Source of the DNA: Nereocystis luetkeana
Lineage: Eukaryota > Sar > Phaeophyceae > Laminariales > Laminariaceae
Direction of reading: 5' to 3'
Assembly (NCBI GenBank): GCA_031213475.1
Contig: JARUPZ010000025.1
Location: forward strand, 3,360,077-3,424,076
DNA length: 64,000 nucleotides
A model generated the notes under the pieces. The model was given only the letters and a program-made list of their open reading frames with translations, was not told the origin of the DNA and did no database searches. The first letter of the stretch is position 1. Every line of letters begins with the position of its first letter. This document shows positions 2,390 to 62,289 of the stretch, in pieces. Made by a program: the position numbers and the translations under genes.

Positions 2390-3608
2390 GTAAGAGGCTT
2401 TCTTAATTTCGAGGTTTCGAATAGGTTCTGCAGCTCCTCGAGTGCGGTGCTTTAGTAAAAACATGCGGTGAGGGGTGGGATACTCCCATTTGCATGGTTG
2501 TTTTTTGGGGACCGCCCGTACGAACGGCTCCCTACCTCACTACCTGGTATAGAATAACGCGTTTTTGAAAGTATGTTGTTCAGTCATGGTGAACAAACAG
2601 AGACCCAACCCCCGGCGACTGTGCCTATCGAGAAGCAAAACAGCACGAGCCCCTAAGGCCTAACAAAAACGGGATGGAGATACAGTAGCGAGTGGCTCTA
2701 TGAACTACCGAGAAATGCTACTCTAAAATTAGACTCCTACCGATGTCTTACCACGATAAACAACTTACTTTACCGCCAACAAAGGTCTGATTGGCGGGGA
2801 GCTGAGATATGTATTGAATGTCATTTGGTTTGAACAGTTTTTTCGGTATATATATGTGTACGTATGTTTGTCAAATTTTCGTACTTTTGCCATTTTGTTC
2901 TCTTCGTACGAGCACTTTTCCGTGAAACACCAAGTACTCGGGCGCATGAAGCCCAGGCGGATACATTGGTCGAGGTCCCGGCGCGATCCGTACACTCTGG
3001 AGCGCGTGGCAGGCGCTCAAAGTTTTTTCCGGCGGGGGTGGATAAGACGATTTCCCTGGTATCAACACGAGAGGCATTATCTTGTACGTACGTATCGGTA
3101 AATTGTTGTCCAGGTGTATGTGCCTGTTTTCCTTACACCAGATACGCAACAGACGATCACAGATAGATCCCATCGTCCCAACGCCGCCGCCCACACGCCG
3201 TGCGTGTGCGACACACCCATATGCGCAGTATTGCTGTGGCTCGTTGTCTTTGTCGGAGCCTTCCGTCCGCATCTCACCATCTGCCTTACCAGGTACCAGT
3301 TTTTTCCCCATGTTTTTTCACGTACAAACACAGGTTGACGTACCTGTATCAGCATCTCTCTCCCTGCGGTGCTTCTTCTTCTGCGCATTCCTGTGTGTGA
3401 TCCAACAATGGCACTGCTCCAGCTTCGCTCGGCACAGTGCGTCAGCAGCAGAAGTAGGCAGCATACTATGCTCATACATAAAATGCGCGCTGCACTTTCG
3501 GTACTACTCCAGCAGTAATGTTTGTTGTTGTCGTCGGCATTGGCTATCTATGCGCATACATACATACATACATGCATACATACATACATACATACATACA
3601 TACATACA

Positions 3609-3642
<34 letters not shown>

Positions 3643-6600
3643 CATACATACATACATACATACATACATACATACATACATACATACATACATACATACA
3701 TACATACATACATACATACATACATACATACATACAACTACATACTTAGATCACAACCCCTGAGCGTGCTCGGTTGGTGCATCCCTGGCCTTTAGAGCTC
3801 CCACTTCCAAACCGCCTCCTTTCATTACTCGCCGGACCTTTCCAGCAGTTCATTGTTTTCTCGGTAATTTCTTCTTTGTTTCTTCTTTTGTTTCGTGTGC
3901 GTGCGTGTTCTCCGAGCACGGCATCGTGGGAGGAACCGGCACCGTCGCGGGTGCCAGCGGGTGCTGGTGGGTAGAGGGGGGGTTGCAAGGAGCGCGGTCG
4001 CCGTTTCCGTGCCTAGGCCTCGCGTGTGCCTCGAGACACGAGGGATGCATGATCGGGCTTTGTCTGGCTTCGATTTATGATTGTTGAAAAAGTAGGTACG
4101 AGTTATGAAGGTCGTTCGGGAGGGCAAGATATTATTCAAGCGGTGCTTATGTTTGCGACCACGCTGAAGTTGAAAGAGGGAGGCGTGCAGCTTGAACACC
4201 AACATTATCGAGCTGGCAAACAACGGCCACGGTGAGCACCGGGGTTCACGCAGTGCGGGCGATGGGGCTGATTGTGGCAGAGAGAGATAAAAGCTTTACC
4301 TGATTCGAATCGGTAGCGAGGTGGTCGCGAGAGGGGCGGGCGGCGTACGAGGCTGAGAGAGAAGCTCTTCTGTGCGATTTTTTTCTTTTCTTCTTTTCGA
4401 CCGGGTGTAAGGTGTTGCAATCAGACAGAAACATATTACACGAGAGGGGACGGGGATTTTTTTCCCTTCCGAGTTTTATATTTATTTTTTTTGCTGCTGT
4501 GCCGTGCTGTGCTTTCGCTTTCTTCCTACATACAGTACAGACATAGAGCATATCGAAAGAAGAAAATAAGCACAGACAGTAGTACCCTACCTGGGGTGTA
4601 TGTACGTACGTACGACATCCGCGACGCGAAGCGTATATGTGGCATCCAAGCTGACGTCGGAGCTTCTTTTTCCTGAAGCATGGCGGCGGGACTCTCGGCA
4701 TTATCAAGTCGCCCGTTTGCAATTACGATTCTTGAAAACACTAAACTCAATCGTGGACCTCTGTTCGCTTCGCATAATTTGATGTATTTTTTTCCTTCCT
4801 GAGCGAAGCGCCTTGTACATACATAGAACTACATACTTAGATCGCAACCCCTGAGCGTGCTCGGTTGGTGCATCCCTGGCCTCTCAGAGCTCCTACTTCC
4901 AAACCGCCTCCTTTCATTACTTGCCGGACCTTTCCAGCAGTTCTTTGTTTTCTCGGTAATTTCTTCTTTCTTTCTTTTTTTGTTTCGTGTGCGTGCGTGT
5001 TCTCCGAGCACGGCATCGTGGGAGGAACCGGCACCGTCGCGGGTGCCAGCGGGTGCTAGCGGGTAGAGGGGGGGTTCCAAGGAGCGCGGTCGTCGCTTTC
5101 GTGCCTAGGCGTCGCGTGTGCCTCGAGACACGAGGGATGCATGATCGGGCTTTGTCTGGCTTATTTATGATTGTTGGAGAAGTAGGTACGAGTTATTATG
5201 AAGGTCGTTCGGGAGGGCAAGATATTATTCAAGCGGTGCTTATGTTTGCGACCACGCTGAAGTTGGAAGAGGGAGGCGTGCAGCTTGAACACCAACGTTA
5301 TCGAGCTGGCCAACAACGGCCACGGTGAGCACCGGTGTTCACGCGAGGCGGGCGACGGGGCTGATTGTGGCAGAGAGAGATAAAAGCTTTACCCGAACCG
5401 AATCGGTAGCGAGGTGGTCGCGAGAGGGGCGGGCGGCGTACGAGGCTGAGAGAGAAGCTCTTCTGTGCGATTTTTTTCTTTTCTTCTTTTCGACAGGGTG
5501 TAAGGTGTTGCAAGCAGGCAGAAACATATTACACGAGAGGGGACGGGGATTTTTTTTCCTTTCCGAGTTTTCGGTTTCGTTTTCATTGTTTTTGCTGCGG
5601 TGCCGTGTTGTGCTTTCGCTTTCTTCCTACATACAGTACAGACGTAGAGCATATCGACAGAAAAAAATAAGTACAGACAGTGGTACCCTACCTGGGGTGT
5701 ATGTGCGTACGTACGACATCCGCGACGCGAAGCGTATATGTGGCATCCAAGCTGACGTCGGAGCTGCTTTTTCCTGAAGCATGGCGGCGGGACTCTCGGC
5801 ATTATCAAGTCGCCCGTTTGCAATTACGATTCTTGAAAACACTAAACTCAATCGTGGACCTCTGTTCGCTTCGCATAATTTGATGTACTTTTTTCCTTCC
5901 TGAGCGAGTGTAGCGGGCGGCGTAGGCCGCCCGCGGAGCGAAGCGCCTTGTACATACATACATACATACACAAATACATACATACATACATACATACATA
6001 CATACATACATACATACATACATACATACATACATACATACATACATACATACATACATACATACATACATACATACATACATACATACATACATACATA
6101 CATACATACCAGGTACATACATACATACATACATACATACATACATACATACATACATACATACATACATACATACATACATACATACATACATACATAC
6201 ATACATACATACATACATACATACATACATACATACATACATACATACATACACACATACCTGCTGCTGCTGTGTGTGACCGGCATTTTTTGCTCCGTAC
6301 CGATCATCTCTGGATCGTGTGTATTCACAACCAATCGGCCGTACGAACATCGTGTACAGCAGCATTCGTACAAAAATACTTCCACTAGTTAAGGTTCATT
6401 CTTATCGGAGAGCGTTTTTTCCATAATAATTTCCAAAGTTTGGAAATAATTGGAGATATGTATCAATATACGGAGGCGTTCTGTCACTATTCGTGAAATT
6501 CTCCAGAACCAAAAATATCAAGTTCGCTAACATTCCAATATTTTTTGGAAAAAATAAAACAGGAAAACATGGGAGGTTGAAAAATTGCGCGAAAAAATGT

Positions 6601-9600
6601 CGAAAATTTGGAAAAAAAGCTCTCCGATAAGAATGACCCTTTTTACTGACTGCTGTGTGTCCTACACTGTTGACCAATAGGTCCCAGCGCCAGCTGAAAG
6701 AGCACAGCAGTACACGCTCCTTAGTTCCAGTACCGCGTATCTTCTGCTGCCTGCCGTATCTTATGACATACATGGCATTCTATACGGCTGTACATTCATA
6801 CATACATGCAGTTGTACCTGTACAAGCTACTCTAAAAGATCCCGCAACGTGTTTTAGATTACGAAAAAAACTTTCGCTACTACAGCAGTTGTATTGCTGT
6901 AGCATACCAGTGGTAGCTGGTAGACGATAACCGAATCTGCGCTTGATTATGCTTGCGTCACCTGTGCTCGACTCCGGACGCACGATCCTCGCGTCTTTTC
7001 TATTGTCACTTTTTTTCACTTTTTATCGTACCAGTACATCCACCTTGCTCTTCTGACCTACTATTAATAGGAATATTAATATTTATACGTACGAGGTATG
7101 ATACAATATTATACAATAATACAAGTTGTTGAGTGTTTGTAGGCGAAGAAGATCGCGGAGTTTGAGCGCGCTTTTATGTGTGGCGTGCGTACACACCTCA
7201 ACATTTCACAGTTGCACCCATTACTTGGGACTTAAGCAAAGTATGTTCGAGAAAACACTGTAGGTATTTCGTGCACTCGCAGTATTTATTTCGGGTTTGT
7301 ACTCCTTCCTGCACGAAGCAGATACGGCGAGTGCTTTAAGTATCTCGGGGTTCGGTACCGATGCGGCTACTGCAAGTATATTAAATTAAGTATTTCGTCC
7401 GTTGGTTCGTACTGCGAGTACTCGCAGTAGTACCGAAATACTCTCAATATGCTCAGTAATACTCCCAGTATCTAGATGTTCCGTATATTTTACCCTGAGC
7501 GCGAAGAAACATTTATTTTGCGGGAATATTTTTTTGTATGTATGTGCTGGGTTTTACTCAGCCGGTCACAAAGTATTACCTGGTATGTCGCAACCTCGAC
7601 CTCGCACAACTTTTTGTACTTACGTTTACGCCGCAAGCGTTGGATTGATCGCCGCGTCACATCTGTGTAGGATCAAAATCCACTTACCCGTACACCCTTT
7701 TTTATAATATTGTAGTAAAGCCGGCGTCCCCGGTGGCTGGTAGGTGGTCCGCGTGCCTATCAAGATCAATTTCGCGGGTTCAAGTCTCACCGAGTGCATG
7801 CTCGAAGGGACTTTTTCTTGCATAAAGAAATTGATTAGCGAAAAGCGCGAAATCGTGAGTTAGCTATGTTCGATGAAACTCGACGAGCAGTGGGAATGCT
7901 GAACCCTATGCGCGACAAAAAATAAAGGCACGTACCGGGGAGGAGACGGGACGACACCTGTGTCCACGGCTTGTCCAGAAGATCGCCGAGGAAAAACCTC
8001 CTACGAGCTATTAATAGGCTGGAGAGAAAAAGTGATACCAGGTACTGTACAAGAAAAAAAGAAAAAAGTAGGAATGATCCCACACCCTTGCCACAAACAG
8101 CGGTACATAGTCTTTCCTAAATTAATATGTGTGTGTTCTGTACGGGTGGACGCAGTTTCTCTGCAGTTCTAAATAGACAGGTAGGTGTGCAGGTATTGCA
8201 AACAACGAGTATTATTTCTTGCACCACTCCGCTAGACACCTCCCGGAAGTGAGCCTTGTATACATATCTCTCTCGGCTGCTCCCCGGCCGGGGTGGAGGT
8301 CCGGCCTGCGGCTTCCCCAACACGTGCTCGAGCTCCCAGTGGAGCGCGACCTTGACCTTGCTTGCGCGTCTAACTAGCGTTGCAGCATGGTCGAGCCGGC
8401 GGTGATGGCCAGCGATATGGCGAAAATTTTCCTCGCGGATTTTTTCCACGCGGCAGTATTGCCTGCGGTAGCCTTGTCGTATCACCGTCGCGCAAAGCGT
8501 GGAACTCATAGCGAACGGAGATAAGAGGCTAGGATCCACGCGAGTAAGCACCCCATTCGACGTCATCTAGGAGATGATGGGCGTCGAGGCGCGTTGGGAT
8601 TGCTGCCCCCAGCACGTCAGAACCTCGGCACGAACCGGGCCGGGCGAAAAAACACGGAACGGAAGAAACCCACCGCCTGGGAAAAGCGGAGGGTAGAGGA
8701 GAAAAAACACGCAGCACGGAAGAAGAGGAGGCAAGGTCGGTAAGGTTGCAGAGAAGCTCGAAGGTTACGCTCAGATGCTAGGGCTAGGTACAGAGCTGGG
8801 GAACTCGTCGTGGGTACGTTCAATGTTCGCACACTCGCCTTCAACGGCAAAAATGGCATCGGCCACATCGAGGTCATCATGAAGGTATGCCAGGAACTAG
8901 GATGCGATGTCGTAGGTCACCAAGAGACTAGGCGAGACGGGCATAACACGTTCACAGCAGCTGGATACACGATTTTTTGCTCTGGAGCAGACGGCAGCAA
9001 ATACGAGAGGAAGGGCACCCATAGTGTAGGACTAGCTGTCAGGGAGTCCATTGTGGCAGGTGTGGGCAAGGATGGTCTCGAGGTGGAGTGCGTTAGTGCC
9101 AGACTGATGAAAGTTCGCATTCAAATTGAGGGCAAATCAAATGCTGTTTCTTTTGTTGTCGGCTATGCGCCGATACTGGATGCACCCGTTCGCGAGAAAG
9201 ATCACTTCTGGAACGAACTGAACACAGTCGTCTCGGGGGTCCCAAGTGGGGATCACCTACTTGTGCTCTTGGATGCAAATGCTCGCACCGGCAAGTGCGA
9301 GAGCGGATGTGCCGGCAGTAAGGTGATGGGTAAATACGGGCGCGATAAATTGAACAACAACGGAGAGCGACTACTCCTCCTCGCAGATGACAACAGGCTT
9401 GCGCTCCTCAACACGTTCTTTGCCACACCTACTCGCGGAGTGTCGTACACTTTCCAATCTCCAAACTCCGGGAAGGGTCAGTGTAGGCTAGACTACATCC
9501 TTACTCGGCAAGTTGATCGACGCCTGGTCCGCAACATGACAGTACGGAAACCCCCAGAGGATCGGCATGAATCTGACCGCAACCTCGTGGTCTGCATTAT

Positions 9601-12600: not shown

Positions 12601-12692
12601 ATTAGAGCCTGTCCTGCGACCACGGACTGCATTGTATTGTGAGTTAATGCGAGAACAACAACAACGACAACAACAACAACAACAACAACACC

Positions 12693-12756
<64 letters not shown>

Positions 12757-15700
12757 TACATATATGTATAACCTATATATTATACAAGGTACACCTTCGG
12801 GATGTATGTACGTGAAATCCCGGGGGCGTAGCAAGGCGAGAATGGAGTCACACGTAACTCGCGTATAGCTGTTCTTGGCGGAGACGTGAACCATGGGTTA
12901 GCGTATTGCTCGAAGAAATGTACAGTAGTTAGCAGGAACTGAGTACTAATCTTTCTGTGGTGAATACTTCACTGCTACATTCACCCGGAACCGTGGGTTG
13001 ACTACTATACTGTTCCTATACACCACTACCACTACTACACAGATGCAGTTCAGATAAACGTAGCACGCACTGTACAAAATACTACCTGGTACACTACTAC
13101 GACTACTAACTATATAACTAAGTACTGCACTAGAGTTGAGCAATCGTTCATACAATACAGACAACCTCATGGTAAACAGAGATATGAAATAACCACGCCA
13201 CACCTCATGACCACTATTCTGTTTTACTATACATCACTGCCAGCGATAGGGAGACGCAGTACAGGTAGAAGCAGCATGAACAAATACTACTCAAATACCT
13301 ACTTATACTGCCACTAGAATACTAACTTTCGTACAACGGCAACAAAGCACGCAAGCGGTACCATGGGTTGGGGGCATAACCGCTATACTGTTACTATTGA
13401 CACACGCCCACCACTACTATGCAGATTGACGTACTGTAGTAACGTAGAAACAGCATGCACGCTATGACTACTGTTATGATACTTGTAGATGTACAGGCTA
13501 CGTCCTACATACTGTTGAGCGCAGCTACTGATATTGCCCAGGTGGAAGCAGCATGAAGCCTGCAACAACAGCAATGGCGGACACCACTCTGACTACGGCT
13601 ATTGCTACTACTTATAGTACAGGTACTATTACCGCTTTTAGACAGGCGTTAATAGAACCACCGTGCATTCGGTACCATGGGCTACTATCAATATTGATAC
13701 TGCAACTACAATCATTACATACTAGACTAAGTACTTTAAAGTTCTATACCTGCGTGTCAAAAACAGCGTCAATGACACAGAAAGGCCGAAAAACAAAAAC
13801 AGCAATATTAGCGGGAAGCATCGTCTCTGAATGTATTCATGTACAGGTATACATACGGTTGGGGCATGATGGAAACGTTATCTCCACCTTTTTGTTGTGA
13901 AAAAGTGATAATCATAGTCAAATAAGTACTCACGGCAACAACAGCTGACTCCTGGCAACAGCAGCTGACTCCTGGTAACAGCAGTAGAACTCTAACATCA
14001 CTATTGCCATCAATAGACAGCGACAGGTTTACATACGATTGGGAACATCACGAAAAACAGATCTGCGCCTGTCCTGAAGTGATTATGTCTACGTTCAAAT
14101 TAATGACTGCGAAAGCAGTATATTATATTCATGGTGACAAAACTCGTGGCAACGGCAGCCCTACTACCTACTACAACTACAACTACAACTACAACTGCTA
14201 CTACTACTACTACTACTACTACTACACTACTACTGCTATCAAAGACTACTTCTTATACTGCTACTGCTACTGCTACTACTACTGCTATTACTACTACTGC
14301 TACTACTACCGCTAGTGTACTCCTACACTCCTACGCCAGGTGCACACGGAGACATGGGGGGGTGAAGGGAAACGGTAAGCACGATGGGCCTGGCTCTGTA
14401 GCTATTGTGCAGTGCGATTACCTGCTGCTGAAAGCGTGCGACTGGACAACTCGCTACAGTAGGTATGATACGTAGATATACAGCAATAAGTACCAGGTAC
14501 CTGGTGCCAATTTTCCCCAGGTAGACGGACCAAGGGAGCAAGTTTTGTAGTCACGTACGTGCTCCGTGTGAGGTGTGTAGTGTACGTCGAAGGACTAAGT
14601 GAAACATGCATGACGCTTGACAGACGTTTACTGCTGCTGCTGCCTCTGAGGTTGATCGAAAACCTAAACTGGGCATGCAAACGAGGGCAATTCCCAAACT
14701 GTTGATATGTTCCAACGCAGAGAAAAATTAGCCAAGATATTTCTTCGTTGCTGAAAGTACACACAGCTCGTCGAAACATTACATACGTGCCCTGGAATCT
14801 TAGTACATATAAAATATAAACCAGGCAGTCGGGCAGTGTGGGCTGTGGCTGGTGCCACACCAAGGCAGTACAGTGAGACGGGACCGGTATAGGCCTGGCT
14901 CTATATATCATGCCCGTTGCGATTACCTGCTGCTGAGAGCGTGCAACTGGACAACTAGCCAGGTATGACACCAATACCTGGTACCAAATTTTCCCAGGTA
15001 GACGAACCGGGAGAGACCGTTTTGTGGCCACGAACGTGCTCGGTGTTCGATTTATACTACCCGTAAAAGGGCTTTGTGCAACAGATTCGACGGCGGACAG
15101 ATGCGTACTGTTGCTGCTGTATGTTGCTGCTACTGCTGCTGGACAACCAGCTAGGTATGGCACCAATACCAAGTATCAGATTCTATCAGGTAGACGGATC
15201 AAGGATTTGGTGGTCACAAGCTTGCCCGGTGTCAGGTGTACACCACCCACCAAAGAGCTTGGTGCAACATATACGACGACAGACAGAAGTGTACTGATGT
15301 TTTTACTGTATGTCTGCAGCTGCTACTGCTACTTCTGCTGCTGAGGTAGAAAGCATATGCACATCAAATGGTTAAAAAAAAAGTGTTCGAGATAGGCGGG
15401 CTATATACTTCTGAAATAACAAAACATGAGTGGGGTTTTCAATGTTACCTACTGGTTCGGCGAGGGAGAAAGCAAGCCCTTTCTAAATAAAGCCAGCTCA
15501 GCGAAGTAAAATGCCCCGGGCACCGCCACGGAGCTCGGCCGGGATCTAGGCATGCGTCGTAATGTACCCACGGTCCCCTTGCTTTTCCCGCAGCTGAAAG
15601 TGCGAGAAAGAACCCTCGGCCACCGGAGAACAGCATGCCAAAAACAATAAAAGTGCATCTAATACATATACATATATGCCTGGACCATGACAGTCTTCAT

Positions 15701-18700
15701 AGGGGTTGCACGCTCGCGTCTTTTCAGGGTCAGGTTATTGGTGGTGTATTGAGATCTTCAACAGACGAGCCTCAGAAAATAGAGCTGCTATAAACAGGTG
15801 CACCAGGAAAAGGTAGCATGCATCTATCATACACGTGTTCTGCACATTGATTCTTATCGTAGCATGGGTGATATTTACAACAAAAGCCGACGTCCTCCGA
15901 CCACACAAAAAAGTACCACACACAGCCAAGGGGGGTACCACTACAAAAGGAAAGGATAGAACGAGTTTGGCGCGGTTTCGGTTGCGTGCCTAAGTTCGAC
16001 GCAGCATTTATTGTGATTGAAACGTGCAAGTGTGTTTCATGGAAATAGCTTGCGCGACCTGCAGCGGCGTTTCTCAGTTAAACGGTTGGCCCTCCGTCTT
16101 GGCGATTTGTGAGTGCGTGCTGGCAGACAGATGAGCCAGGCATAAGGTAGAAGTATCTGTATAAAATACAGTACAGTATAGCTGCCCCCGAAAACGCTGA
16201 AACGTACAATAGGTTCGATTCAGCTCGCATCAAACAACATAACATATACCCATCTCGGCCTGTAGCGTCTACATTGGAGTGCATATGTTTTCGAGCACAA
16301 AGAACGCTTGGCGTTAGAGTGGGCATTTAATCACAGGAGTAAAAAGGGGTAGAGTAAGTGCGGGTGAAACATCGTACGCAGACGTCGCTTGGTTGATCCG
16401 GCCTTTATGGCCCGCATAGTCCATGACGCAATGCCATATACAACGTCCAAACCTCGAGTCGGCCCCACTCGATGTGCAGCTCTGACCACGTTACTACGAC
16501 AATCACAGGTATGGTAAGCTAAGAATGTGGGGTGGGTTCGGGTTCGGAGTGGCGTCGGTGATCGGCGGTTATGTTTTCGACGCGGGCACCGGCGGTTACA
16601 AGGACGTCATGATCACGTTCGTGACCCTCACGCTCGTCACCATTGTCGCGGCCACATTGGTTCCCATCGGTATAACCGCGAAGGCTTACCAGGAACCCGA
16701 CGAACCAAGGTGGGTGTTTTTTTCATGTAATTTCCTGGTTCTGTGGGGTTTCCCTGACCGTGTACATATTGCGGGTGATTTTTTTACTGAGGCACACTGC
16801 TATGGCGGAGTTTAAAAGTCAGGTCTACTACGCCAACGGCTTGGTGAAGAAATCACAAAGTAGTATGAAAATAATGGAGACCGAACTGATGTGGTTACGC
16901 TGCATTCCATCATGCTGGTAGCACCAACCTTTTCTGACGAACCTCGCTTGATGACCTCCAAACGTCACCCGAAAAGTGGATATACAGAAAGTATATAGCT
17001 GCAACCCAACGAGCAACCTCATAGCCTATGTAGGGTATGTCTGGTGCCTGTCTATGTTTCGAAAATGTTGTAGAACACGCACAGTATTCCCGCGGTATAT
17101 TGGAATGAGGATCATGGACAACGATGAACAGCTTGGTCCGAACAGTGCACACCTCACACAGAAACATCGAGCATCAACTCATGATCTGGATCGCTCGAGG
17201 CAGATATGTTCTCGCTTGCGTATGATCTAGCTTAGGGTTACAGGTAGGCCTCCGTACGGCCTGCATGATCTAGCACATGTTTCCTGGTTCAACGATTCAC
17301 GACGTATATCCCGCAGGGCCTCGGAGATTCAACAGGTGGGAAAGTAGTTTTTGTTAGGTCATGAAATACCTAATCTGTCCGAGGAGTGGAACGGCGCTAT
17401 AATGCATGCACTACCGTAGTAGAGCACGCGCCTGGGCGGTCGGCGAAAGAGAGTATATCCGCTTTGGAATCATGCACATATCCGTTCGACAAACGGTGTG
17501 TCGCATCACCGGCGTAATTACAAATATCTGTGGAAGTGTGCAGGAAAAATAGATATCTCGGTGATGTCATCATGATACTTACACACCCTGTAGAACGCGT
17601 GCCTGAGTTGTCACATCAAGCTTGTCAATATGCGTTTTGAGCAAGTGTTTGGTCTAATAGCTCCGTCATTTTTTCTTTCATACCTGGTATATAGCTTTCA
17701 AGATGTATTGAACCAAACTGTTACGGTGTACGTTCACAACTAACCGCCTCTTGGATATCGTAACTTCTACTAGCGGCGAGGAGCACGACAACGGTGGAAA
17801 ACGTCAGGTTTCAACCAACGGACGGGAGATCGCCGAGAAGACGATCAACCGCAAACACGTGGGTTCTGGAGCAGCTATGCCCATGGCCGCGGCCGCCGCG
17901 GCAACCAGCAACACGACCGGTCCGAACTGCAGGAGTGCGTGCCCCCCCGTGGGTAACCCACCTGCTCTAGACGCTATAGACGAGACGATAGTTACCACGA
18001 TTGGCACCGGTGGAGACAATGACGAGGAGCGGGGACTGGCGCAGAATGGCGCGGACGACACCGCGATGTCGGCGGTGTGGCGCGCGCTGCGCACCGTGGA
18101 TGCCGTTTCTTTTTTGGCGACGGTGGTCCTCAGCGGGATGGGCAGCGGTTTCATCGACACATTTCTTTTCATCAGGTTTGGGATCGATGTGTCGCGTTGA
18201 CGACGGGCAGCATTTGGACCCTTAGCGACGATATGGCCCCATTACGGTCGGGCATGGCGATCAAGACACATCACGTACACAAACACATACCCGGTACATA
18301 TTACTTTACGTTTACTGAATATATTTGGGTCGTGGAGGCGTTTTACGATAGAGGTGTCGCATCTGGGGGAAACAAAGAGGAGCCATCACGGCGTCCATAC
18401 CTGGCGCGCTGTTGAAGGAGGGATTCATACTGCACCACGGTTCATGGGGATAGGTGTAACCTTAAAAGGTGCACGCCCCAGTCCCAAGCATCAGCCGCAT
18501 TCGTATGTTTTCTTCCTTGAATTCCGCGTTTTGCTTTGGGGGTCAGATCAGCCTCAGAAAATGCAGGGTGGACATCTATCGTAAAACGACTCTCTGATCA
18601 CTATTTTGCCTCGTACGAAGTAATGGGTTATTGTTGAGATCATAAGGCAGAGAGCGTAAACTACGCTCGGGGCGTACATGGCACCTTTGCAGTTTACGGA

Positions 18701-25129: not shown

Positions 25130-25328
25130 AAATGAGTAACTCCGGGTCTTGGAGGTGCGACGCGCGCAATCAAACGGAGTAGCATTTCTTGGTTGGAAAC
25201 GTTCTGACTTAGGACAGGGTTATCCTTTAAGGGAATATAGGAAGTACTGTAATAAATACCTGGTATCCAATATGGTCAGGGCAACATTTATGTATACGAA
25301 TAATTGCTCGCTTGCTTAAGGACGACTT

Positions 25329-42829: not shown

Positions 42830-43180
42830 CTACTTTTCTTTTTTTAAAATCAACATCCCTTGTACTTTCCAGCCTATAACTCGTACCTGGTAGGAGGTTT
42901 TTACCCTCAACGTGCTTCTGGACAAGCCGTGGTCACAGGTGTCTACCCTTCTTCCCCCCGGCACGTCGTGCCTTATTTTTTTGTCGCGCAACGGGTTCAG
43001 CATTATTCCCACTGCTCGTCGATTTTCATCGAAAGCAGCTAACTCGCGCTCTCGCGCTTTTCGATAATCAATTTTTTAATGCAAGAAAAAGGCCATACGA
43101 GCATGCACTCGGTGAGACTTGAACCCACGCAATTGATCTTGATAGGCACGCGGGACCACCTACCAAGCCACCGGGGACGC
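42830..43180 (-). mobile_element. tRNA-derived SINE, copy 2
   Basis: On the minus strand the head starts GCGTCCCCGGTGGCTTGGTA, with B box GGGTTCAAGTCTCACC and a 5-bp T stem (GTGGG/CTCAC). The body aligns with 7724-8071 throughout. At 42884-42892 it has TACCAGGTA (minus) where copy 1 has only TAC. The A-rich tail is at 42830-42850. Confidence 0.85.
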
Positions 43181-45345: not shown

Positions 45346-45350
45346 AAAAC

Positions 45351-45810: not shown

Positions 45811-48800
45811 TTCTCCATCCGTCTCGAATGGCCAAAAATTGTTTTTTTTTCAGGTTTGGGAGGATACCGTAGGTCGCCGCCGGCAAGCTCTCGCCCCCTA
45901 GACCATGGGTCCGCCTGATATCTTCGAGGCCGTCATCTATACTCGTTGGGCTTGCCAGATACCGAGTGGGTTGGCCGTGGGCTGAGTCTATGTCGAGATC
46001 GATCGTCGATCGTCGCACGAGCTGGTTTCGATAACCGTGTTGACAATTTGCGACCAGAAAAACACAAATTGCGCCGCTTGCCTGCGTGCAGCCGTTGGGG
46101 GAAAAAAAAGAAAAAATCAAACATTTTTCTCTTTTTTCCCCACAGCGGCGGTACGAGAAAATTTTCGGCTGTTTTTTTAAAGCCATATATTTGAAAAAAA
46201 ACTTTTGAACTTCGCGTTTCCATTGGCATAGGTAATACTCTTCCTTTTTCGGGTTATATAGTACCAGGTATGAATCAGTTGCGCAGAATGGTCATGATAA
46301 ATCGTCCTGTTGAGCCGGGTAGCATCCAGGGTAGCCACAGGCTTATACCCTAAACAAGGAATTACATACGTACGGAATACGTGCAGACTTCTTATCATAC
46401 ACCTACCTCGTAAAAATCAGTTAAAATGGGGAATAGACGAGGCGTGTTACCCAGCTTGCAAAGTCGACGATCAACTATTGTATGTAATCAGCTGACGTAC
46501 TTACGTAATTTTATTTTTCAAGTTTCGCGTCAACCATTTATTTGGTCGAAGTCGCGACTGAGGTGAATTTTGCACGTCGTTTTTCAATGATGTTTCTGCA
46601 CCTTATAGGTGGGTTTTTTTCAGATCAACATGCACGTTGTCGTGCGTGTGTACAAACACGTCACAATTCTACAGTCTGCAGCAACGCATATCAAGGCTAC
46701 CCGCACCTGCTGACCGGTACCTGGTACCTTAAGATCCACTCTTCGAATCTCGACCTCGCAAGCTGATGCGCGTTTCCCGTTTGTCGATAGCTAACAAAGA
46801 CGACTCGTACTTTGTACCCGGTGCCTCGTACGTACCGTATACTATATAATCAAGCTAACACATCCCCTGGGGGCGAATTTACTGACCGACTCGGCTCCAA
46901 AGCAGGGGGGGTACGCACAACGAAGACAATGGTTTTTGAATCGATTTCGACGATATTTTTCCATAGACTCATCGCCCGGCGTATTCAGTACGCGCCCTTC
47001 CCGCTGTCGGGAAAATCATCTCCGAAGTTCGTCCGAGTGGGGGTGTTATCTCGCCACCCTAGTGTGATAGTGTTTTACGGTAAACGTGCACAGCAGTAGT
47101 ATTGGCTCGCGAAGGAGAAACGCCTAACGCGAAGCCTTAGAACCGGGGTAATTGTGATATACCCCTTGAAGTCGACCTCGAGCACAGGCCATTTTACATG
47201 CCTGTGGGTAGGAATTTGGGTAGCGATCGACGCTGAGCGCGGTTTCCTAGTCAAATGTTCTCAGCGCCCCTCGAAAACGCCATCACTATTTTCTTACTAC
47301 TAATGCATTCCTGGTAGATTACTCCTTGCAATATGCTTGGTCTATACTGTGGTGGAGGACGCACGCCCATAGTATATGGCAGTGTATACCGCAACATAAG
47401 GAAAACAAATAAATATTTTTGCCTCAGGAAAGGGCCTTATTGCGGGACAGAGTGGTGTTTTTTTGGGCGCCTTGATGTGTATGATCTGGGAATCGACGTT
47501 CCGATAGCCCCTCAAAATGTTTCATCGGCCAACGATTGCTCTAGCTTCGTACCCGGGCCTCAGGAAACGTACGGTATGTTATTTTGCGAGACGTCATGTT
47601 CATGCTCAAGTTACTATAGCAGACGTATGTTGTGAAATAAGCTATCTGATAATGTTTAGCTGCGTTTTCCCTTCGTGGCGCTGTTAGCGCCAAGGCGGCA
47701 TTTTTCGCGTCGGTGTTCACGTTAGGCTCAAGCTCTCGGTGGAACTTGACTGCACAAACGACGTGAAAGGGTTAGACTGCATCCGCGACAAAATAGCCAG
47801 TCTCGAGGGCAGTTGGATCCTGACGCCTTCACTCATAGTACCGTGGGTGCAGGCACCAGGACCCTACCGCCCCCGAGACTGATCACTTGGTCGACAATGT
47901 TGCCTCCCCCCCCCCCACGTCTTTTATGCGATCGAGTTCCACCGGGAGCTTGAGCCCAAAGTGAATGCTGACGAGGGCAACCGCCTTAGCGCTAGCAGCG
48001 CTATGAACCAGACATAGATAGTCATCCCTCCCACCAGAAAAGCACCAAGACAATACGGCAGCCGTCGCCTGCTGCTGCCGTTGAGATCCGATTTTTCCTG
48101 GAGAAGATCCCTCCCGTTCGTTCAAGAGACAGCTCTCCTCCGTACCATTGACCTGGTGCATGGGTGCATGAGCGTTGAACACCGAACACAGAAGCGCGTA
48201 CCACCGTGGGGGTTGAGACGTTGATGGGTGTTTGGGGTCGAGTCCGGTGTGGTGTGTTGCCACGACTGGGCATTTTGATATATATATATATGTGTCTTCT
48301 GTAGAAACGTGCCTTGCTTTTCCTTGCCTTTCTTCTGCTCTACTATTAATAGCTGTCGCTGTAGTCTCGCTATTGTTTGTCGCTGCTGCCACGGGCATCT
48401 AATAATTTTAGCACCCTCATTGCGTAGACACCGTTCGTTGCTATTGCGTGTGTTTTCTTTCGTGTAGTTTTTGGACCGTTCCTCTTGGTTGGGAGTTTTC
48501 TCTGATTCTTCTGAGATGCACGCTTTATGTGTTTTACCGAGACTTGTTGGTCTTACTTCCATCCCTACGACGGTCCCCATGTCTGTCGTATAGGCTCCAT
48601 CCTTTACGTTGCAAGCACGCCAGGAACGACATCGGACGCGCTCGCGCCGTGTCCTGGAGTTGGGGGTCGGTCTTTCTTCACGTGTCGGCCGGTTGCGCCC
48701 GGGCCGCCAGTTTTCTCACCCACGCCCGCGCCATGTCTTGGCAAACCATTTATTAGGGCGAGGAGGCAAGCTGGACAGTCTACCACGTCTATCTACTATT

Positions 48801-49400: not shown

Positions 49401-49862
49401 AGTATTTATCGAAAGTTGTTAATAGTGAGACGCGCAAACATTATTCCAGCGATACAATGGTTGGCTCATACTTTAGTGGAGGGGCCCCGTACTACAGTTT
49501 ATGCAAAAAAAATGCTGCGAGTACCAGGTCTGTGGTAGCACGCGCCATTATTAGACTGATGTGGAACACTACAGTGCCAGTGGCAGGACCAAAGTTACTT
49601 GTTCTGTCTTTTCACCTGTCTGTGTGTGCCAATGCTCGCACATCAGGATGGTGCCACCATTGCTGGTGCTACTGCTGGGGTCCTGCTGCGGCCCTGTCAC
49701 ATGATGTCACACTGGCACCTGGTGGTGCTGATGTTCTGGCATACTTACTAACTATGCAAAACACGCACCAGGTATATCGCTGCTGCTTCCGCTGCTGCTG
49801 CTTGCTGCGAAATATATATCATGTATTTTAAGCGTCTGCGTCGAAACAAGTACCAGGTATGC

Positions 49863-49960: not shown

Positions 49961-49978
49961 GTTTTTTATAGTGCCAAA

Positions 49979-50278
49979 TGTGGGATTTGCTCGTACCAAA
50001 GTCTGATTTTCTGATTGTACTGAATTGTGTGATTCTTGTAAATGTAATATATCTACGTAGATTGCGGCGGGATTAGTGTTTCCCCGAGGAGTTGCATAAA
50101 ATTGTGTTTGACCTGCTTTCAGGGGTCTTATAGAGTCTAGGGGAACGTGGCCCCCTTGCTCTCAGTCCACCAGTACACTAAAATAATTGATACCTTTCTA
50201 CTTCTTCTACCCACCGCCTCATGGCAAGGCCCACCCACGCATCACCCAAGCGCACCCGGTGCTCGAATTGATCCCTTA
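49979..50278 (+). repeat. 5' LTR of the Copia element
   Basis: Starts TGTGGGATTTGC and ends GATCCCTTA. It differs from the 3' LTR at one visible base (ACGTAGATT against ACGGAGATT). The end could be shifted by one base because C follows in both copies. Confidence 0.93.
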
Positions 50279-50341
50279 CGCTAGCGAGCGTTAGCCTCTG
50301 ACATATGGTCACGGTCGCTCGGGCACGGGGTGTAGCGCACC

Positions 50342-50492
50342 ATGGTGGGTTTTGTGGTTTTAGGGGAGGAGCTTCCTTGGATGACAAGGATCCTCGATCA
50401 GGAGAGGCGACACCGCGAGGGAGCGGACATCGGGTTGGGGACATGGACTCCTGAAGAATGGAAGGAGCTACAGGAAACAGCAGCAGCCCCAT

Positions 50493-50528
<36 letters not shown>

Positions 50529-51301
50529 CAGCGGCGGCAGCGGCAGCAGCAGCAAAGCAGCAGAAGCAGGAGCAGGAGCAGGAGGAGCGTCACGGTAGGC
50601 CGGGCGCAGGATGCCGCATGGATTTATCATCTTTCCACTTGCTTACCGTCAAGGAGCAACAAGAAGCCATTGAAAAATATGTTGACCAGCAGCTGAGAGC
50701 TAGGAGGGGTTACGCAACCGCCGCGAATGCACGAGAGGAGGCAAGGAAAAAGACAGAGAACACGCACCAAGCCCAGGACAATGGTTCGAGGAGCTGCGAC
50801 AACTCGTCACCCGCCGACCCAGTGCTATCGAGAGCAAAAAGTGCGGCCCAACAGCAACAGCAGCAGCAACAACAAGTACGGGCTTCTACGTACGTCAAGA
50901 AAGGCGACGAGGAGGAGTTGATGGATATTACTGAGGAGGAGGAGTCGGATGAGGAGGAGCAGCACGGTTTGGAGCGTGAAGTGGTACCGGTGGATGGCAT
51001 GGGGATGGTGAGGGAGAGGGAACTGGAGGAGGAGTCGGATGAGGAGGAGCAGCACGGTTTGGAACGTGAGGGGGTCCCAATGGATGGCATGGGTCTGGTG
51101 GGGGAGATTGGTGTGACGGAAGGAGCTGTCGGGTGTTCGGAGAACATTGACGAGGACGACGGTGCGCCGAATGGAAGCGCTTGGGAGCGAGTTGGGATCG
51201 GTACGGGATGGTCATGCAGCGGCACCTTCGTGGGGTGGGGGTGTGAGGTGGCCGGTCGGCGTCCGACTCGGCTACGGCGGGCGCGCGTGCGAGAAAAGTG
51301 A
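50342..51301 (+). CDS. Copia element ORF1, Ala/Gln/Glu-rich, not a recognisable gag
   Basis: ATG at 50342, 64 bases inside the 5' LTR; 319 residues. Order: a short N-terminus (LPWMTRILDQERRH and WTPEEWKEL), an Ala run (about residues 47-71, CAG microsatellite), a charged coiled-coil-like part (LTVKEQQEAIEKYVDQQLRA), a Gln run, and two copies of EEESDEEEQHGLERE near residues 197-245. The C-terminus is Gly/Arg-rich. No CCHC knuckle or capsid motif is seen. It sits where gag belongs, so it may be a replaced, captured or degenerated gag. It is open through its whole length, unlike decayed pol. Confidence 0.55.
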
Positions 51302-52283
51302 AGGACCATCATCTTCGAGCAATTGCTCATCAGGCACGTTCTTGCTGTCTGTGTTTGGTTTGTTTTTAGAAACGTGATACTCGTACGAGTACGAGTAGTC
51401 TAGTCTTCGCTGTGGATTTGATCTTGTGTTTTTTTTGTTTTGCAGCGTTTCGAGACTTGTCATAATTTGGTGATGGCCATTTGATGCGTGGCGTGTGTGA
51501 CTGCAACTTTTGGAACTTTGAGCTTTCATTTACGAGTATACGTATCAAGTTCCGGACATACGTACGATTCACGTAATATACGATACACGTAACGTGTTGG
51601 ATAACAAAAACGCAGTTCGTATACGAGTAAAAACTACTGAGACGAGCGCGGCTGGAGGATAGAAAACTTGACTGGTATATATAATGTTTGCGATGGGCAC
51701 GAACTAGGGAGGGTAGTATGAGAGTTCAGTTTGAGCACATCGGAAATTCACACGGAATACCGGGTATCTTGATTGATAGTTTGCATGACCCTGGTTGCTC
51801 CCCTCACAGACAATATTTGAGGTGTACACAGGCCATGCGGGTGATATTCTCTTCCAACTAAATATCACCAAGCTATTAATGTTTCGTCCGATAGGATGAA
51901 GAGTCACCAGATTCCCTCATTCGAGTACCTTTGCTTTTCCCCCCTTTCGCTGTCGATGATTTGCCGAATCTCTGCTTGGAGACTGCACTGCGTTGATTGC
52001 ATCAGGTGGACGGTTGACGAGAGGACTAAATCACGACCGGGCATGGTGAACGGAGAAAATGAGGTGGATGCTCGACGGTCGTGATGTGTGGTTGTAGTGG
52101 TACTATTATATTGGGTAACGGTTGGTATTGATAGTGTTTTTGTTGTGTCTTTTTTATTATTTTGCTCGGTACTGCTATGTAAAAAGCGCAGGTAGTGGTT
52201 CGTTTTTGCTTGACATTGTGTGTAGCTTCTTCCAGTCAGATCTTGCCGACACAAGTTTTACTGCCATTTTGACTGTTGAGCAG
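51302..52283 (+). other. Non-coding interior of the Copia element
   Basis: About 1 kb without recognisable protease, integrase or the first RT motifs. ACGTATACGAGTA-like short repeats occur at 51370-51630. The deletion junction with the pol fragment is near 52240-52284. Confidence 0.5.
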
Positions 52284-53474
52284 GCTTTCGTGCAGTCTGA
52301 TCTTGAGGAAAATGTTTTCATGCGTTTGCCTCAGGGATGCGGTAGACTGTCGGGGAAGATAGTACGACTGAACAAGAGCTTGTACGGTTTGAAGCAGGCA
52401 TCGAGGCAGTGGCATGCTCACCTCACTAGGTGCTTACTGACTTTAGGGTTTGAGCAGTGTCTGGCTGATGCATGCGTATTTCGTTTGATGGATGAGGGGA
52501 GAGTAGTGATGACTATAGTGGTGCATGTGGATGATATTTTTGCGGTAGGGGAGAAGGCAAGGTGTGACCAGTTTGGCAAGGAATTGGACAAGATGGTTCC
52601 AGTTAAGAACCTGGGAGAGTTGCGTTGGTATTCGGGGTGTTTCTACGAGAGGGATTGGGAAAAGGGGGTGCTGAAGATTTCCCAGCAGACATTCGCTGAA
52701 CAATTGGCGGATGAATACGGGATAGAGTTTGGTAAGAGTGTTCCGCTCCCTGTTGGCACAAAACTTGCGGACTTTGACCAGGATGAAGCGCCAGGGAGCT
52801 GGCCGTTTCGCGAGTTGGTTGGCTCACTGATGTGGCTTTCAACTCAGACTCGGCCAGACATCTCCAACGCAGTAAGAGCAGTGGCTAGGTACTGCGCTGC
52901 TCCCAAGTTAGTGCACTGGAGGGCAGCACTTGGTATTTTAGGGTATGTGAGGAGGACTAGTTCTTTCGGAGTCACTTTTCAGAGAGGTACGGACGGGGGG
53001 CTGAGCTTGCAGGTGTTTGCTGACGCAGACTATGCAAGCAAGGCGGCTGACAGAAGGTCAGTTTCAGGAGGATTGGTGATGTGTGGGGGTGCATGCGTGT
53101 CTTGGTTTTCTAGGACTCAGAAATGCGTCACACTTTCCACGACGGAGGCAGAGTACGTGGCACTTGCAGACGTCATTAAGGAAGTGTTGTTCTTGAGGCA
53201 GGTTTGGCGCTTCATGTTGCCTGATGTAGGCATGCCGTGCATACCGGTGTTCGAGGATAATCAGGGTGCGGTGCAGCTTGCACAGAACCCTATTACCAAC
53301 TCAAACTCCAAGCACATCGACGTGCGACACCACTTCCTCAGGGAACTGGTTGGGAGGAAAGAGATATCGATCATCCACGTACCGTCCCCTTTTCAGCATG
53401 CGGATTTTCTAACCAAGGCCATCTCGCGAGAATCGTTCGAGTTCCACCGTAGCCTTGCGATGAATATGTGGTGA
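52284..53474 (+). pseudogene. Copia pol fragment: reverse transcriptase palm plus RNase H
   Basis: The frame is open from 52122, but similarity starts at AFVQSDLEENVFMRLPQGC (residue 55 counted from 52122). It continues with LNKSLYGLKQASRQWHAHL, motif C VHVDDIF (VDD 136-138), the GSLMWLSTQTRPDIS connection, and RNase H FADADYASK (Asp301), STTEAEYVAL (Glu342), FEDNQGA (Asp379) and KHIDVRHHF (Asp400). The Asp of motif A expected four residues before AF is Thr here (TVEQAF), so RT should be dead while RNase H looks complete. Integrase and protease are absent. TGA follows at 53472-53474. Confidence 0.9.
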
Positions 53475-53723
53475 CCCTATTGGTGTGGTATTGATTCCAT
53501 CGGGTACTGGTGATCGTTAGCCATGGCCAGTACCTTAGTAAAATTCGTGTTGATCCCAACGGGTGTCGATGATCGTTAGCCATGATTGACACTTTAGTGA
53601 CCTTCCTTCGGACTGTGTTATTTTATTTTGAGATTTCAGGGTGTTGTTATCATTAAAGGCGTTGGATGCATAGGTTTTATTTTTGATATTTTGACCGGAC
53701 GAGAGTTATCAGGACTGTGAAAC

Positions 53724-53735
53724 GAGCAGGGGGAA
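53724..53735 (+). other. Polypurine tract of the Copia element
   Basis: GAGCAGGGGGAA lies directly before the TGTGGG start of the 3' LTR, the expected place of plus-strand priming. Confidence 0.8.
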
Positions 53736-54035
53736 TGTGGGATTTGCTCGTACCAAAGTCTGATTTTCTGATTGTACTGAATTGTGTGATTCTTGTAAAT
53801 GTAATATATCTACGGAGATTGCGGCGGGATTAGTGTTTCCCCGAGGAGTTGCATAAAATTGTGTTTGACCTGCTTTCAGGGGTCTTATAGAGTCTAGGGG
53901 AACGTGGCCCCCTTGCTCTCAGTCCACCAGTACACTAAAATAATTGATACCTTTCTACTTCTTCTACCCACCGCCTCATGGCAAGGCCCACCCACGCATC
54001 ACCCAAGCGCACCCGGTGCTCGAATTGATCCCTTA
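53736..54035 (+). repeat. 3' LTR of the Copia element
   Basis: 300 bp, 299 identical to the 5' LTR by eye, followed by the CCAAA target duplication. Confidence 0.93.
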
Positions 54036-54534: not shown

Positions 54535-54537
54535 TTA

Positions 54538-55709
54538 CGAGACTATCCATAAAAAACGAATACTGGCCAGAATCAGTCAAAATCGGTCATTATCGGGGGG
54601 TTTCGGTGAAGTGATGAATACCTCACGAATATTCTCTGGTACAAAAAAGAAGGGAACGGTGAGCGTGCTTGGGAACGTATGTAACAGTTGTAGATGAATC
54701 GTTTTACGTAGGCAATTTTTATAGCTCGTGGTTGATTACCGCGGGTACCCGCAACGCCAACGAAATCGGCCTTCAAGATCCTACTTTAGCCAGTATCTCT
54801 TTAAACAAAAGAAGTAATTGAAGTCGGAACCAAGAGCCCTCCCCGCCTACGAAGAGCCCGGCAAAACCGTGGTCAGAGTACATGGGAGCAAAGCCCAAGA
54901 CACGCCTATAAACTGGATGCGAATTTGCACCGGGTTTTTTCAAACGACAGGCGAAACAATGAAACGAACAAAAAATACTAACAATGATAAGCTGCGGCCG
55001 AGGAGCTGATGGTTTCTACCGTGGTTTTCGATGCCCGAACAACCCACCAGGTCCTGGTCCTGCAAAAACTATTCCGTTCTGGCGGTTTTGCTCTTGTTTT
55101 TCATCGATGAGCATCGGGGGGCTTGATTCCGTTTCCCCCAAGATCAGTCCACCGTTCGTTCCTTAACAGTTTTTTTTTTTTTGCGGTACCCTGTGGCAGG
55201 ATATTCCTGTACCAGGTATGCGCGATGGACCTTAGTCCCGCGCTTGGTTACCGTGCGGCAGCAGTGGCAGCGGTGGTGGCGTGGCAGCTGGCTCGCCTAT
55301 TTGTGACAGCCTTTGCGTTGCTTGGTTGCCAACACATTTCAGCGCCCCACCGCATCCATACAGGGGTCTGTCGACGGCGCTGCTCGCACAGCAAGGGCTC
55401 GTGTCGACGACCACAGGGGCAGGACGGGAAAGGTCAGTTGTGTCGTATATCATCTGCGAGTTCGCTTCTCACCGTTTCACGTCTCGGCCAGATGACCGAT
55501 TCATACTTCTTATTCCCAAATGATTCAGGGAAGACTCCTGCTCTGTATGATCCACGTAATAATGCGTTTCATTTTGCCGATGCGGGAGCCGTATAATCTG
55601 AATGCTGTACTGCTGCTGTATACAGTAGCACACGCTTCCTCCGTTGAACCGGTCCTTTGCCGGTCTTGCACAACCTTTCACAACGGCAGGCGAGGAAGTG
55701 GATGGTCTA
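54538..55709. other. Anonymous intergenic DNA
   Basis: No supported gene. A 157-codon frame at 55123-55596 has one hydrophobic stretch but no family match. TACCAGGTA lies at 55210. Confidence 0.35.
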
Positions 55710-55818: not shown

Positions 55819-55820
55819 TA

Positions 55821-60375: not shown

Positions 60376-60621
60376 GGCGTTCTACGGTAGAGGTCCACCC
60401 TATTTTTTCTTAGGGTTCTCCGATGAGGAGCTCAATAGCTTACCCGAAAACTGACTTCAGCAAAAAATAACGTAACATCCCGATGAATAATACCGTGGCT
60501 CAATTATACGAGAAGGCCAGTCTTCGAAGCAAGATTGGCATTCCGACGAGTTTTGGGCTAAGGAGCCCAGTCATTCAGAAAACGTTTCGGTATAAATGTG
60601 CTACCTCTATGGTAGAACGCG
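60376..60621 (+). mobile_element. MITE family M2, copy e
   Basis: Begins GGCGTTCTACGGTAGAGGTC and ends GCTACCTCTATGGTAGAACGC. Interior blocks ACTGACTTCAGCA, CATCCCGATGAATAATACC and GATTGGCATTCCGACGA are shared with copy d. Confidence 0.78.
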
Positions 60622-62289
60622 TCGTTGTTCGGTAATAGGTCGGGTCTAGGGGGGCCCTTATCATTAGTGGTCGGTCGATCGGGCTCGTCGTTCTTGTAAG
60701 AAGCACTTTTTTATATTTCCATTTACAGCGTAGTGATAGCACTACGAGATGTTGCGATAGCCGGTAGCTACTCGCCGTTTGACACAAATCACTTTAATCG
60801 TCTTTGTCGCGAACATGTTTTCAGGTTTATGGGACGACTACATGAGACAAGTGTTTTGTGTTCTGTTGCCTGTCTTTGACCTTGGTTTGCTTGTGGACGC
60901 AGTCAACAACGTCTCCATGTACTCGTATAGAGCATACCGAGGGCCTCCTCGAATTGACGATGGGGGGTGACAGTACATGTGTAGGCCCGACAAAGGCAAC
61001 TCTAACCCACCCTTCCTGAATTAATTGCGCCAAGGCCGTGTAGGACCTATCCTCTCCTGCCCCCCCCTTTGGTTTATTGTGCGCGATTTGATTGTTTCAG
61101 ACCAGGATGCCCAACGTGCAGAAGGAAACCGTCTGGAACGTATACGAGATTGCTCTATGGATGCAAGAAGCGGTGCGAACATCGGAAGTACCCCCCCTGA
61201 AGCGGCTATGGAACTCCAGCCGCGGCAGTCCGAGTTATGTCCTCCCAGCGGGAATAATATAAGAAGAGGAGTCTTCCGTTCACCAAAACCATAGCAACGC
61301 CCTTGAACGACCCCAGAAACATGAATGTGCATTTTCCAAGGTGTCTTTGCGGTCTTGCTCGTTTGATGACCCCATTTCGATGTTGCTGGATGTATATGTG
61401 TCGGTTGTCTGCTGCTATAGCTCCACAACAGAACCTCCCTGATAGCCGCAATACCTTTTGCCGATTTCTGTAGCCAATAATTGAGCGCCTTGAATGTTGT
61501 TTCGACGGTCTCCGGGGAGATTCGAGACTCGAAACCATATTCCAGCAAGTTCATCTTCTCGGGTATTAATATTAATACCAGGTACACTACTCGTAGTTGT
61601 ATTTTTTTTCTTGTGTTTTCGTTTGGGGGGTTGGTTCAAGCAAAGTTCGTGTGCAGAACGCAACAACGACCCGCGTTGCCGTGCTGTTCCCTAGGTGTTA
61701 GCTTGATTCACGCTAGTTAGTGTCGCTGTAAGGGGCAACTGATATTCCCAACAGCAGCAGCAAATATAGGCTTGCGTGTGGTGAAACCATGAAATATTTG
61801 TTGCCTCTGCTTTTTTGTGGCGGGGACTAGCGCGTTTTGACTCAGGTTCTCGATTGTTTGACCCCCGTGTGTTACGCTCTCTGTTTTTCCTGCTGCTGTT
61901 GCTGCTGCGCAAATGTTCCAAGATTACTACGTAGTCACGCGACAGTCGTGCGTAAACATTTATTTCCCTTGTTATTCCCGCGCGTGCGTCCTACGTGACT
62001 CCAGCGTTGCTATTTCTACCAGGTACCTACGTCTTGGTTTCACCGGATGTAAAGTTGGCATTATCCATCCCAGCAGCATATTCCCCGCGTACGTGATGCT
62101 GCCTAAAAGTGCAATAGTACCTTATACCAGGTACTGACCTAAACCTCACCGGTATACCGCTTTCGTGGCATTTTTCGAGGACGGAGCTTTTGTATCTGTG
62201 GTGATACAATTATATAGCCGCACAGAGAGCGATCGTGGATGAAGTTATACCAGCCGTTCGTTTATGTATGTATTGTGCGTGGTGCAAGA

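What the first reader, a model, noticed from the sequence alone, without database searches (positions are those of the whole stretch)
2541..62133. TACCWGGTA palindrome about 35-fold over-represented
I count 18 exact copies of TACCAGGTA/TACCTGGTA in 64 kb; equal base frequencies predict about 0.5. They are scattered and in both orientations, and outer bases vary while TA-CCWGG-TA is constant. This looks like a short mobile footprint rather than a satellite. A palindrome with an ambiguous central W between duplicated TAs is what end joining after excision gives for some TA-targeting (Tc1/mariner-type) transposons, where two short overhangs mispair only at the centre. No full element with ends CCAGG is visible here, so the source is unidentified. 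A protein-binding palindrome is the alternative.
Basis: partly seen in the sequence, partly recalled or inferred. Interest (0 to 1): 0.75.

Follow-up and report, generated by a model that had tools for sequence, protein, structure and literature searches.

The report
Scars of a missing jumping gene
This probably brown-algal genome carries a seven-letter scar about every four thousand letters, apparently left each time a cut-and-paste jumping gene departed, while the jumping gene itself was not found in the DNA examined.

Summary
In detail: 18 exact TACCWGGTA in the window against 0.39 expected, the most over-represented 9-mer. It is not local: 74 in 280 kb sampled from five chromosome-scale contigs of the same assembly. 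The motif is a 7-bp insertion at a TA: TA -> TA-CCWGG-TA. One copy interrupts a (CATA)n microsatellite that is in perfect phase once 7 bp are dropped. Of 15 sites with a usable paralogue, 6 have one exactly 7 bp shorter, against 3 of 139 other TA-N5-TA sites, two of which overlap real scars (Fisher 2e-5). Flanks show a target preference, and nested scars occur. Best explanation: excision footprints of a TA-targeting, probably Tc1/mariner-type, transposon leaving 5-nt overhangs CCAGG that pair except at the central A:A, like Sleeping Beauty's C(A/T)GTA but longer. No source element was seen in 344 kb, so overhang, transposase and superfamily are inferred. Against: 7 of the 15 sites also have an ungapped paralogue; 14975 is probably not a scar. 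TA-TTAA-TA looks like a second scar. The genome search did not complete.

The parts
2541..2549 (.). TACCTGGTA, footprint candidate
   Evidence: exact match; no paralogue tested
3287..3295 (.). TACCAGGTA, footprint candidate
   Evidence: exact match; its one counted paralogue (L026:1281) carries the motif too, ungapped: uninformative or older than the duplication
6107..6115 (.). TACCAGGTA inside a (CATA)n microsatellite: clear 7-bp insertion
   Evidence: 0 period-4 mismatches over the joint after dropping CCAGGTA, 7 with it
7577..7585 (.). TACCTGGTA, footprint candidate
   Evidence: exact match
8036..8044 (.). TACCAGGTA, footprint candidate at the edge of a SINE-like repeat
   Evidence: exact match; homology between the repeat copies ends there
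13083..13091 (.). TACCTGGTA, footprint candidate
   Evidence: exact match; both counted paralogues ungapped, L002:9517 sharing it and L003 reading CGCCTGGTA
14491..14499 (.). TACCAGGTA, probable footprint
   Evidence: dropping 7 bp raises the alignment score to the copy at 14975 by 14, but in a gap-rich stretch with tied positions; no gain against the copy at 15160
14975..14983 (.). TACCTGGTA, probably not a footprint
   Evidence: aligns without gap to TACCAAGTA in the next copy
17681..17689 (.). TACCTGGTA, footprint candidate
   Evidence: exact match
25257..25265 (.). TACCTGGTA, footprint candidate
   Evidence: exact match
42884..42892 (.). TACCTGGTA in a SINE-like repeat: 7-bp insertion relative to the copy near 7724-8036
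   Evidence: no 7-bp deletion elsewhere (329 tried) raises the score more; joint reads ctcgTAggagg in both. In one search the net gap is 3, because the other copy has 4 bp more close by
46262..46270 (.). TACCAGGTA, footprint candidate
   Evidence: exact match
46718..46726 (.). TACCTGGTA, footprint candidate
   Evidence: exact match
49851..49859 (.). TACCAGGTA, footprint candidate
   Evidence: exact match
55210..55218 (.). TACCAGGTA, footprint candidate
   Evidence: exact match
61576..61584 (.). TACCAGGTA, footprint candidate
   Evidence: exact match
62017..62025 (.). TACCAGGTA, footprint candidate
   Evidence: exact match
62125..62133 (.). TACCAGGTA, footprint candidate
   Evidence: exact match

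Best explanation
TACCWGGTA is the excision footprint of a cut-and-paste DNA transposon that inserts at TA and duplicates it. On leaving, it is cut so that each flank keeps a 5-nt single-stranded piece of its terminus, CCAGG. The two pieces anneal (C:G, C:G, A:A mismatch, G:C, G:C), are sealed, and the A:A is resolved to A or T, giving TA-CC(A/T)GG-TA, a net +7 bp. Shown here: the 7-bp insertion at TA in the testable cases, its abundance over five contigs, a target preference, scars nested in scars, and one dominant product. Inferred: the transposon, its ends, the 5-nt stagger, the repair route, and a Tc1/mariner-type transposase.
For: Microsatellite in phase after dropping 7 bp. 63 of 108 site-paralogue pairs differ by exactly 7 bp against 10 of 830 for other TA-N5-TA sites; by site 6 of 15 against 3 of 139, p 2e-5, two of the three controls overlapping real scars. 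In a survey of 455 indels between repeats, CCAGG is the commonest TA-x-TA insert of five bases, 4 cases, the same sites as. Symmetric target preference and four nested TACCWGGTACCWGGTA against 0.0 in Markov sequences. Shorter joints in excess: CCAG/CTGG 26 vs 14.2, CCGG 15 vs 6.1. Sleeping Beauty leaves C(A/T)GTA (PMC3878927, passage).
Against: No source element: TACCAGG not followed by TA occurs 40 times in 344 kb, about 42 expected. 7 of the 15 testable sites also have an ungapped paralogue, four of them only such; four more differ by 3, 5, 8 or 9 bp and not 7. The paralogue pairs are not independent: L008:9829, L019:8053 and L024:9429 lie in one repeat family. Published Tc1/mariner overhangs are 2-3 nt (PMC3878927, passage), shorter than the 5 nt proposed.
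Confidence: 0.8

Rival explanations
1. Footprint of a TA-targeting transposon with a shorter stagger, the CCWGG coming partly from fixed fill-in repair and not from a 5-nt overhang.
For: Known Tc1/mariner overhangs are 2-3 nt (PMC3878927, passage). Shorter joints CCAG/CTGG and CCGG are in excess, and 2 of 5 CCAG/CTGG sites with a paralogue have one 6 bp shorter.
Against: One product with A or T at the centre dominates (92 exact, 8 with C or G), which a mismatch in a 5-nt duplex explains simply; repair without such a duplex tends to be mixed: 8 of 94 rice excisions were perfect (PMC4423477, passages).
Confidence: 0.09
2. Some other process inserts CCWGG plus TA directly, without a departing transposon.
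For: No source element in 344 kb; scars only.
Against: I know of no such process; TA duplication, a symmetric target preference and a mismatch-like centre are what excision predicts.
Confidence: 0.05
3. Joints of programmed excision by a domesticated TA-specific transposase.
For: Many scars, no element seen; one dominant joint.
Against: One-mismatch relatives exceed expectation (128 vs 80.8), as if scars decay by inheritance; two pairs of diverged repeats share a scar.
Confidence: 0.04
4. Protein-binding palindrome kept by selection.
For: Palindromic, exact, scattered; shared ungapped by some diverged repeats.
Against: It arises as a 7-bp insertion with TA duplication and sits inside a microsatellite and repeat copies.
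Confidence: 0.02

Closest known systems
Sleeping Beauty and Frog Prince excision footprint C(A/T)GTA (Tc1/mariner)
   Same: TA duplicated, short self-pairing overhang, A or T at the centre (PMC3878927 table passage; overhang of three nucleotides, PMC7827188 passage)
   Different: Five inner bases here, three there; here one joint dominates, and the source is unknown
Minos footprint, 6 bp
   Same: Tc1/mariner-type, TA target, longer than the usual footprint (PMC10992017 passage)
   Different: 7 bp here; the Minos footprint sequence was not seen in the passage
Mariner-Tc1 families of Ectocarpus
   Same: Brown alga with 17 families and almost 12,000 copies, mostly non-autonomous (PMC12477816 passages)
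   Different: Ends are not given in the passages; 'footprint' and 'excision' occur 0 times in the main text; the window's species is not identified

Membership tests
Transposon excision footprint | Related sequences without it carry the plain target | tested here: met
   6 of 15 sites have a paralogue exactly 7 bp shorter vs 3 of 139 controls; microsatellite. 7 of 15 sites also have an ungapped paralogue
Transposon excision footprint | The source element exists with matching ends | tested here: not met
   No excess of TACCAGG ends in 344 kb, no TIR pair in the window; most of the genome was not seen
Tc1/mariner superfamily | TA target and TA duplication | tested here: met
   Plain TA in paralogues, TA on both sides of CCWGG
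Tc1/mariner superfamily | Overhang and footprint of 2-4 nt | tested here: not met
   Five inner bases dominate; known range from PMC3878927 and PMC7913693 passages
Tc1/mariner superfamily | DDE transposase and terminal inverted repeats | not tested
   30 of the window's 107 ORFs of at least 100 aa were scanned with Pfam, none matched a transposase of this kind; genome-wide search not answered

The most novel reading that the evidence does not exclude
The scars are joints of programmed, genome-wide excision by a domesticated TA-specific transposase in a multicellular alga, comparable in logic to ciliate internal-element removal but leaving 7-bp scars; the source is not seen because it persists only in another life stage or in very few copies.
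Probability: 0.04. Interest if true: 0.92.

Novelty: new variant of a known kind. Interest (0 to 1): 0.62.

Why it matters
If true, a cut-and-paste transposon can be recognised, and its departures counted, from scars alone: about one per 3.8 kb in the sample, with no element in view. Each scar is an event at a known TA, so excision history, target choice and end-joining fidelity could be measured in a lineage where they are little studied. A 5-nt, nearly self-complementary overhang would extend the range I found in print for TA transposons.

Tried and rejected
Rejected: satellite or simple repeat (flanks unrelated); substitution-born binding site; an element inside the window with ends TACCAGG (pairs up to 12 kb). 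In the 28 stretches I only listed such ends and looked for shared sequence by eye; TIR pairs were not scored there. The case of 14491 looked clear by hand but is in a gap-rich alignment. In one search the comparison of 14975 with the third copy used overlapping stretches and says nothing.

Led nowhere: exact-motif literature search (224 papers hold a term, 20 listed, none looked relevant by title); viral-contig searches with Copia, LINE and EsV-1-7 proteins (no confirmed relative); genome-contig search with a 22-base piece of the repeat (0); Rfam at gathering threshold (0). TAC(A/T)GTA is frequent (107 vs 48.0) but its paralogue test is not above control (2 of 17 sites vs 8 of 151, p 0.27), so it is not claimed; TACSGTA, TACGTA and TACCGGTA likewise.

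Dropped rows: sites too near a stretch end (92 to 89 queries) and alignments without good 15-base flanks. Nested copies were left out of the target profile. 'Empty TA' counts can be inflated by trimmed alignments, so one search is used for statistics. The output was cut. Papers were seen as listings and passages only, none whole.

The labels SINE-like and MITE-like are mine, from the look of the repeats; ARAGORN and Rfam found no tRNA or RNA family in the window.

The sites with gaps other than 7 are now four, W 42884 included.

Full report
WHAT WAS CLAIMED AND WHETHER IT IS THERE. The window holds 18 exact TACCWGGTA, 10 with A and 8 with T at the centre; 100 dinucleotide shuffles gave a mean of 0.39 and never more than 3. 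It is the 9-mer furthest above an order-4 Markov expectation among those with at least 8 copies (18 vs 0.77); the next odd palindrome of that length has 4 copies. The window is probably from a brown alga: a 978-residue protein at 31144-34080(-) has 15 EsV-1-7 stretches, and of its 30 relatives six bear an organism name, three Scytosiphon, two Ectocarpus and one Elliptochloris. The species is not identified.

BEYOND THE WINDOW. The genome search did not complete, but stretches of the window's own assembly could be taken. In 28 stretches of 10 kb from contigs C1-C5 (13.6-21.9 Mb long) there are 74 copies in 280 kb, 16.9 per 64 kb, 0 to 7 per stretch. Window and stretches together: 92 in 344 kb against 4.8 (sd 1.9) in order-4 Markov sequences. 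By length, an extrapolation, the five contigs (about 89 Mb) would hold over 20,000.

IT IS AN INSERTION AT TA. (a) At 6107 the motif interrupts a (CATA)n array; dropping CCAGGTA leaves 0 period-4 mismatches across the joint, against 7 with it. (b) At 42884, in a SINE-like repeat, dropping 7 bp gives ctcgTAggagg as in the second copy, and none of the other 7-bp deletions tried (329 in all) raises the score more. (c) Controlled test over 344 kb: of 89 sites with enough flank, 15 had a paralogue with good flanks. 63 of 108 site-paralogue pairs differ by exactly 7 bp; of other TA-N5-TA sites (689 queries, 139 with a paralogue) 10 of 830 pairs do. By site it is 6 of 15 against 3 of 139, Fisher 2e-5; two of the three control sites overlap the scars at L008:9829 and L015:566. 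At L003:8194 all six counted paralogues are 7 bp shorter and read TA. Pairs are not independent: L008:9829, L019:8053 and L024:9429 lie in one repeat family. (d) In a survey of 455 indels of 3-15 bp between repeats, CCAGG is the commonest TA-x-TA insert of five bases, with 4 cases, the same sites as in (c).

RESULTS AGAINST. 7 of the 15 sites have at least one ungapped paralogue; for 3287, 13083, L002:9517 and L026:1281 the counted paralogues are only ungapped, so these scars are older than the copies or are no scars. W 42884 (3), L007:7700 (8, 9), L009:9564 (9) and L013:4504 (5) differ by other lengths; at 42884 the partner has 4 bp more nearby. At L015:566 three pairs differ by 7 and ten by 8. 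14975 aligns ungapped to TACCAAGTA. 14491 is only probable.

ANATOMY. Leaving out nested copies, in 166 half-sites the base next to TA is C or T in 82% (52% at all TAs) and outward position 7 is A or T in 86% (48%). In the window alone, A/T content at outward positions 2-9 exceeded random TAs (p 0.0002). Such a symmetric preference around TA is what an integration target gives. Four nested TACCWGGTACCWGGTA occur against 0.0 in Markov sequences; how many chance reuse of TAs would give was not computed. In one repeat family two copies bear the scar at the same TA, one with A and one with T, while 19 and 14 of their counted relatives are 7 bp shorter (L019:8053, L024:9429). One-mismatch relatives number 128 against 80.8, 8 of them with C or G at the centre, a modest excess that suggests decay. 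Shorter joints are in excess: CCAG/CTGG 26 vs 14.2, CCGG 15 vs 6.1. None of the 18 sites lies in the EsV-1-7 ORF, the LINE ORF region or the Copia RT ORF, too little sequence for a test.

MECHANISM. Shown: TA becomes TA-CC(A/T)GG-TA. Inferred: a TA-targeting transposon with ends CCAGG is cut with a 5-nt stagger, the overhangs pair except at the central A:A, and repair fixes A or T. Sleeping Beauty leaves C(A/T)GTA (PMC3878927, passage) after three-nucleotide overhangs (PMC7827188, passage). Passages give 2-3 nt overhangs, 2-4 bp footprints (PMC7913693) and 6 bp for Minos (PMC10992017). In rice 8 of 94 excisions were perfect (PMC4423477, passages) and Stowaway footprints vary (PMC1925063, passages), so the uniformity here is notable.

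THE MISSING SOURCE. TACCAGG not followed by TA occurs 40 times in 344 kb against about 42 from equal base frequencies. By eye the listed ends share little: one same-strand pair 77 bases apart in L012 shares 15 bases, and six of 40 begin TACCAGGCAC, which I did not pursue. In the window no end pair looked like a terminal repeat. The element is rare, extinct, or has altered ends. Ectocarpus has 17 Mariner-Tc1 families with almost 12,000 copies (PMC12477816, passages); ends could not be compared.

A SECOND SCAR. TATTAATA (54 vs 17.5 in 344 kb) behaves alike: 4 of 9 sites with a paralogue have one 6 bp shorter, against 19 of 368 TA-N4-TA controls (p 0.001).

NOVELTY. Excision footprints are known. 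This one, its length and its density were not met in my searches of an open-licence PMC library (listings and passages only). I rate it a new variant of a known kind.

Noticed in passing
window 599, 7062, 7074, 8009, 30635, 43408, 48344, 49353, 61564, 61570, 63437; L010:2882, L022:811: TATTAATA, a second probable TA footprint (TA-TTAA-TA): 4 of 9 testable sites have a paralogue 6 bp shorter; in L022:811 gtgcTATTAATAcctctatcg stands where window relatives read gtgcTAcctctatcg.
   Followed up: partly
window 14455-14461: TACAGTA in the first of three related copies, where the third reads a single TA (+5 bp), like a Sleeping-Beauty-type footprint; sample-wide the class is not above control.
   Followed up: partly
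L008:9829, L019:8053, L024:9429 and many other places: A MITE-like repeat of about 110 bp, matching on both strands, very common in the stretches, with CCWGG scars in at least three copies.
   Followed up: partly
L005:7895-7970: Run of degenerate TACCWGG units (TACCTGG TGCCTGG TACCAGG TACCAGG), as if a TA had been scarred repeatedly.
   Followed up: no
six of 40 listed ends, e.g. L012:3732 and 3809, L024:4442, L013:3383: Ends beginning TACCAGGCAC are more frequent than I would expect; not tested.
   Followed up: no
window 31144-34080(-): 978-residue ORF with 15 EsV-1-7 cysteine-rich stretches; an EsV-1-7 domain is reported at the start of the Ectocarpus TcMar-2 transposase (PMC12477816, passage).
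   Followed up: no
window 49977-54033: Identical 300-base direct repeats (49977-50276, 53734-54033) around a Copia-type reverse transcriptase ORF, probably a young LTR element.
   Followed up: no
window 3794-5873 and 45346-45811: Tandem duplications of about 1.09 kb (95-96% alike) and of 230 bp (98-99%).
   Followed up: no
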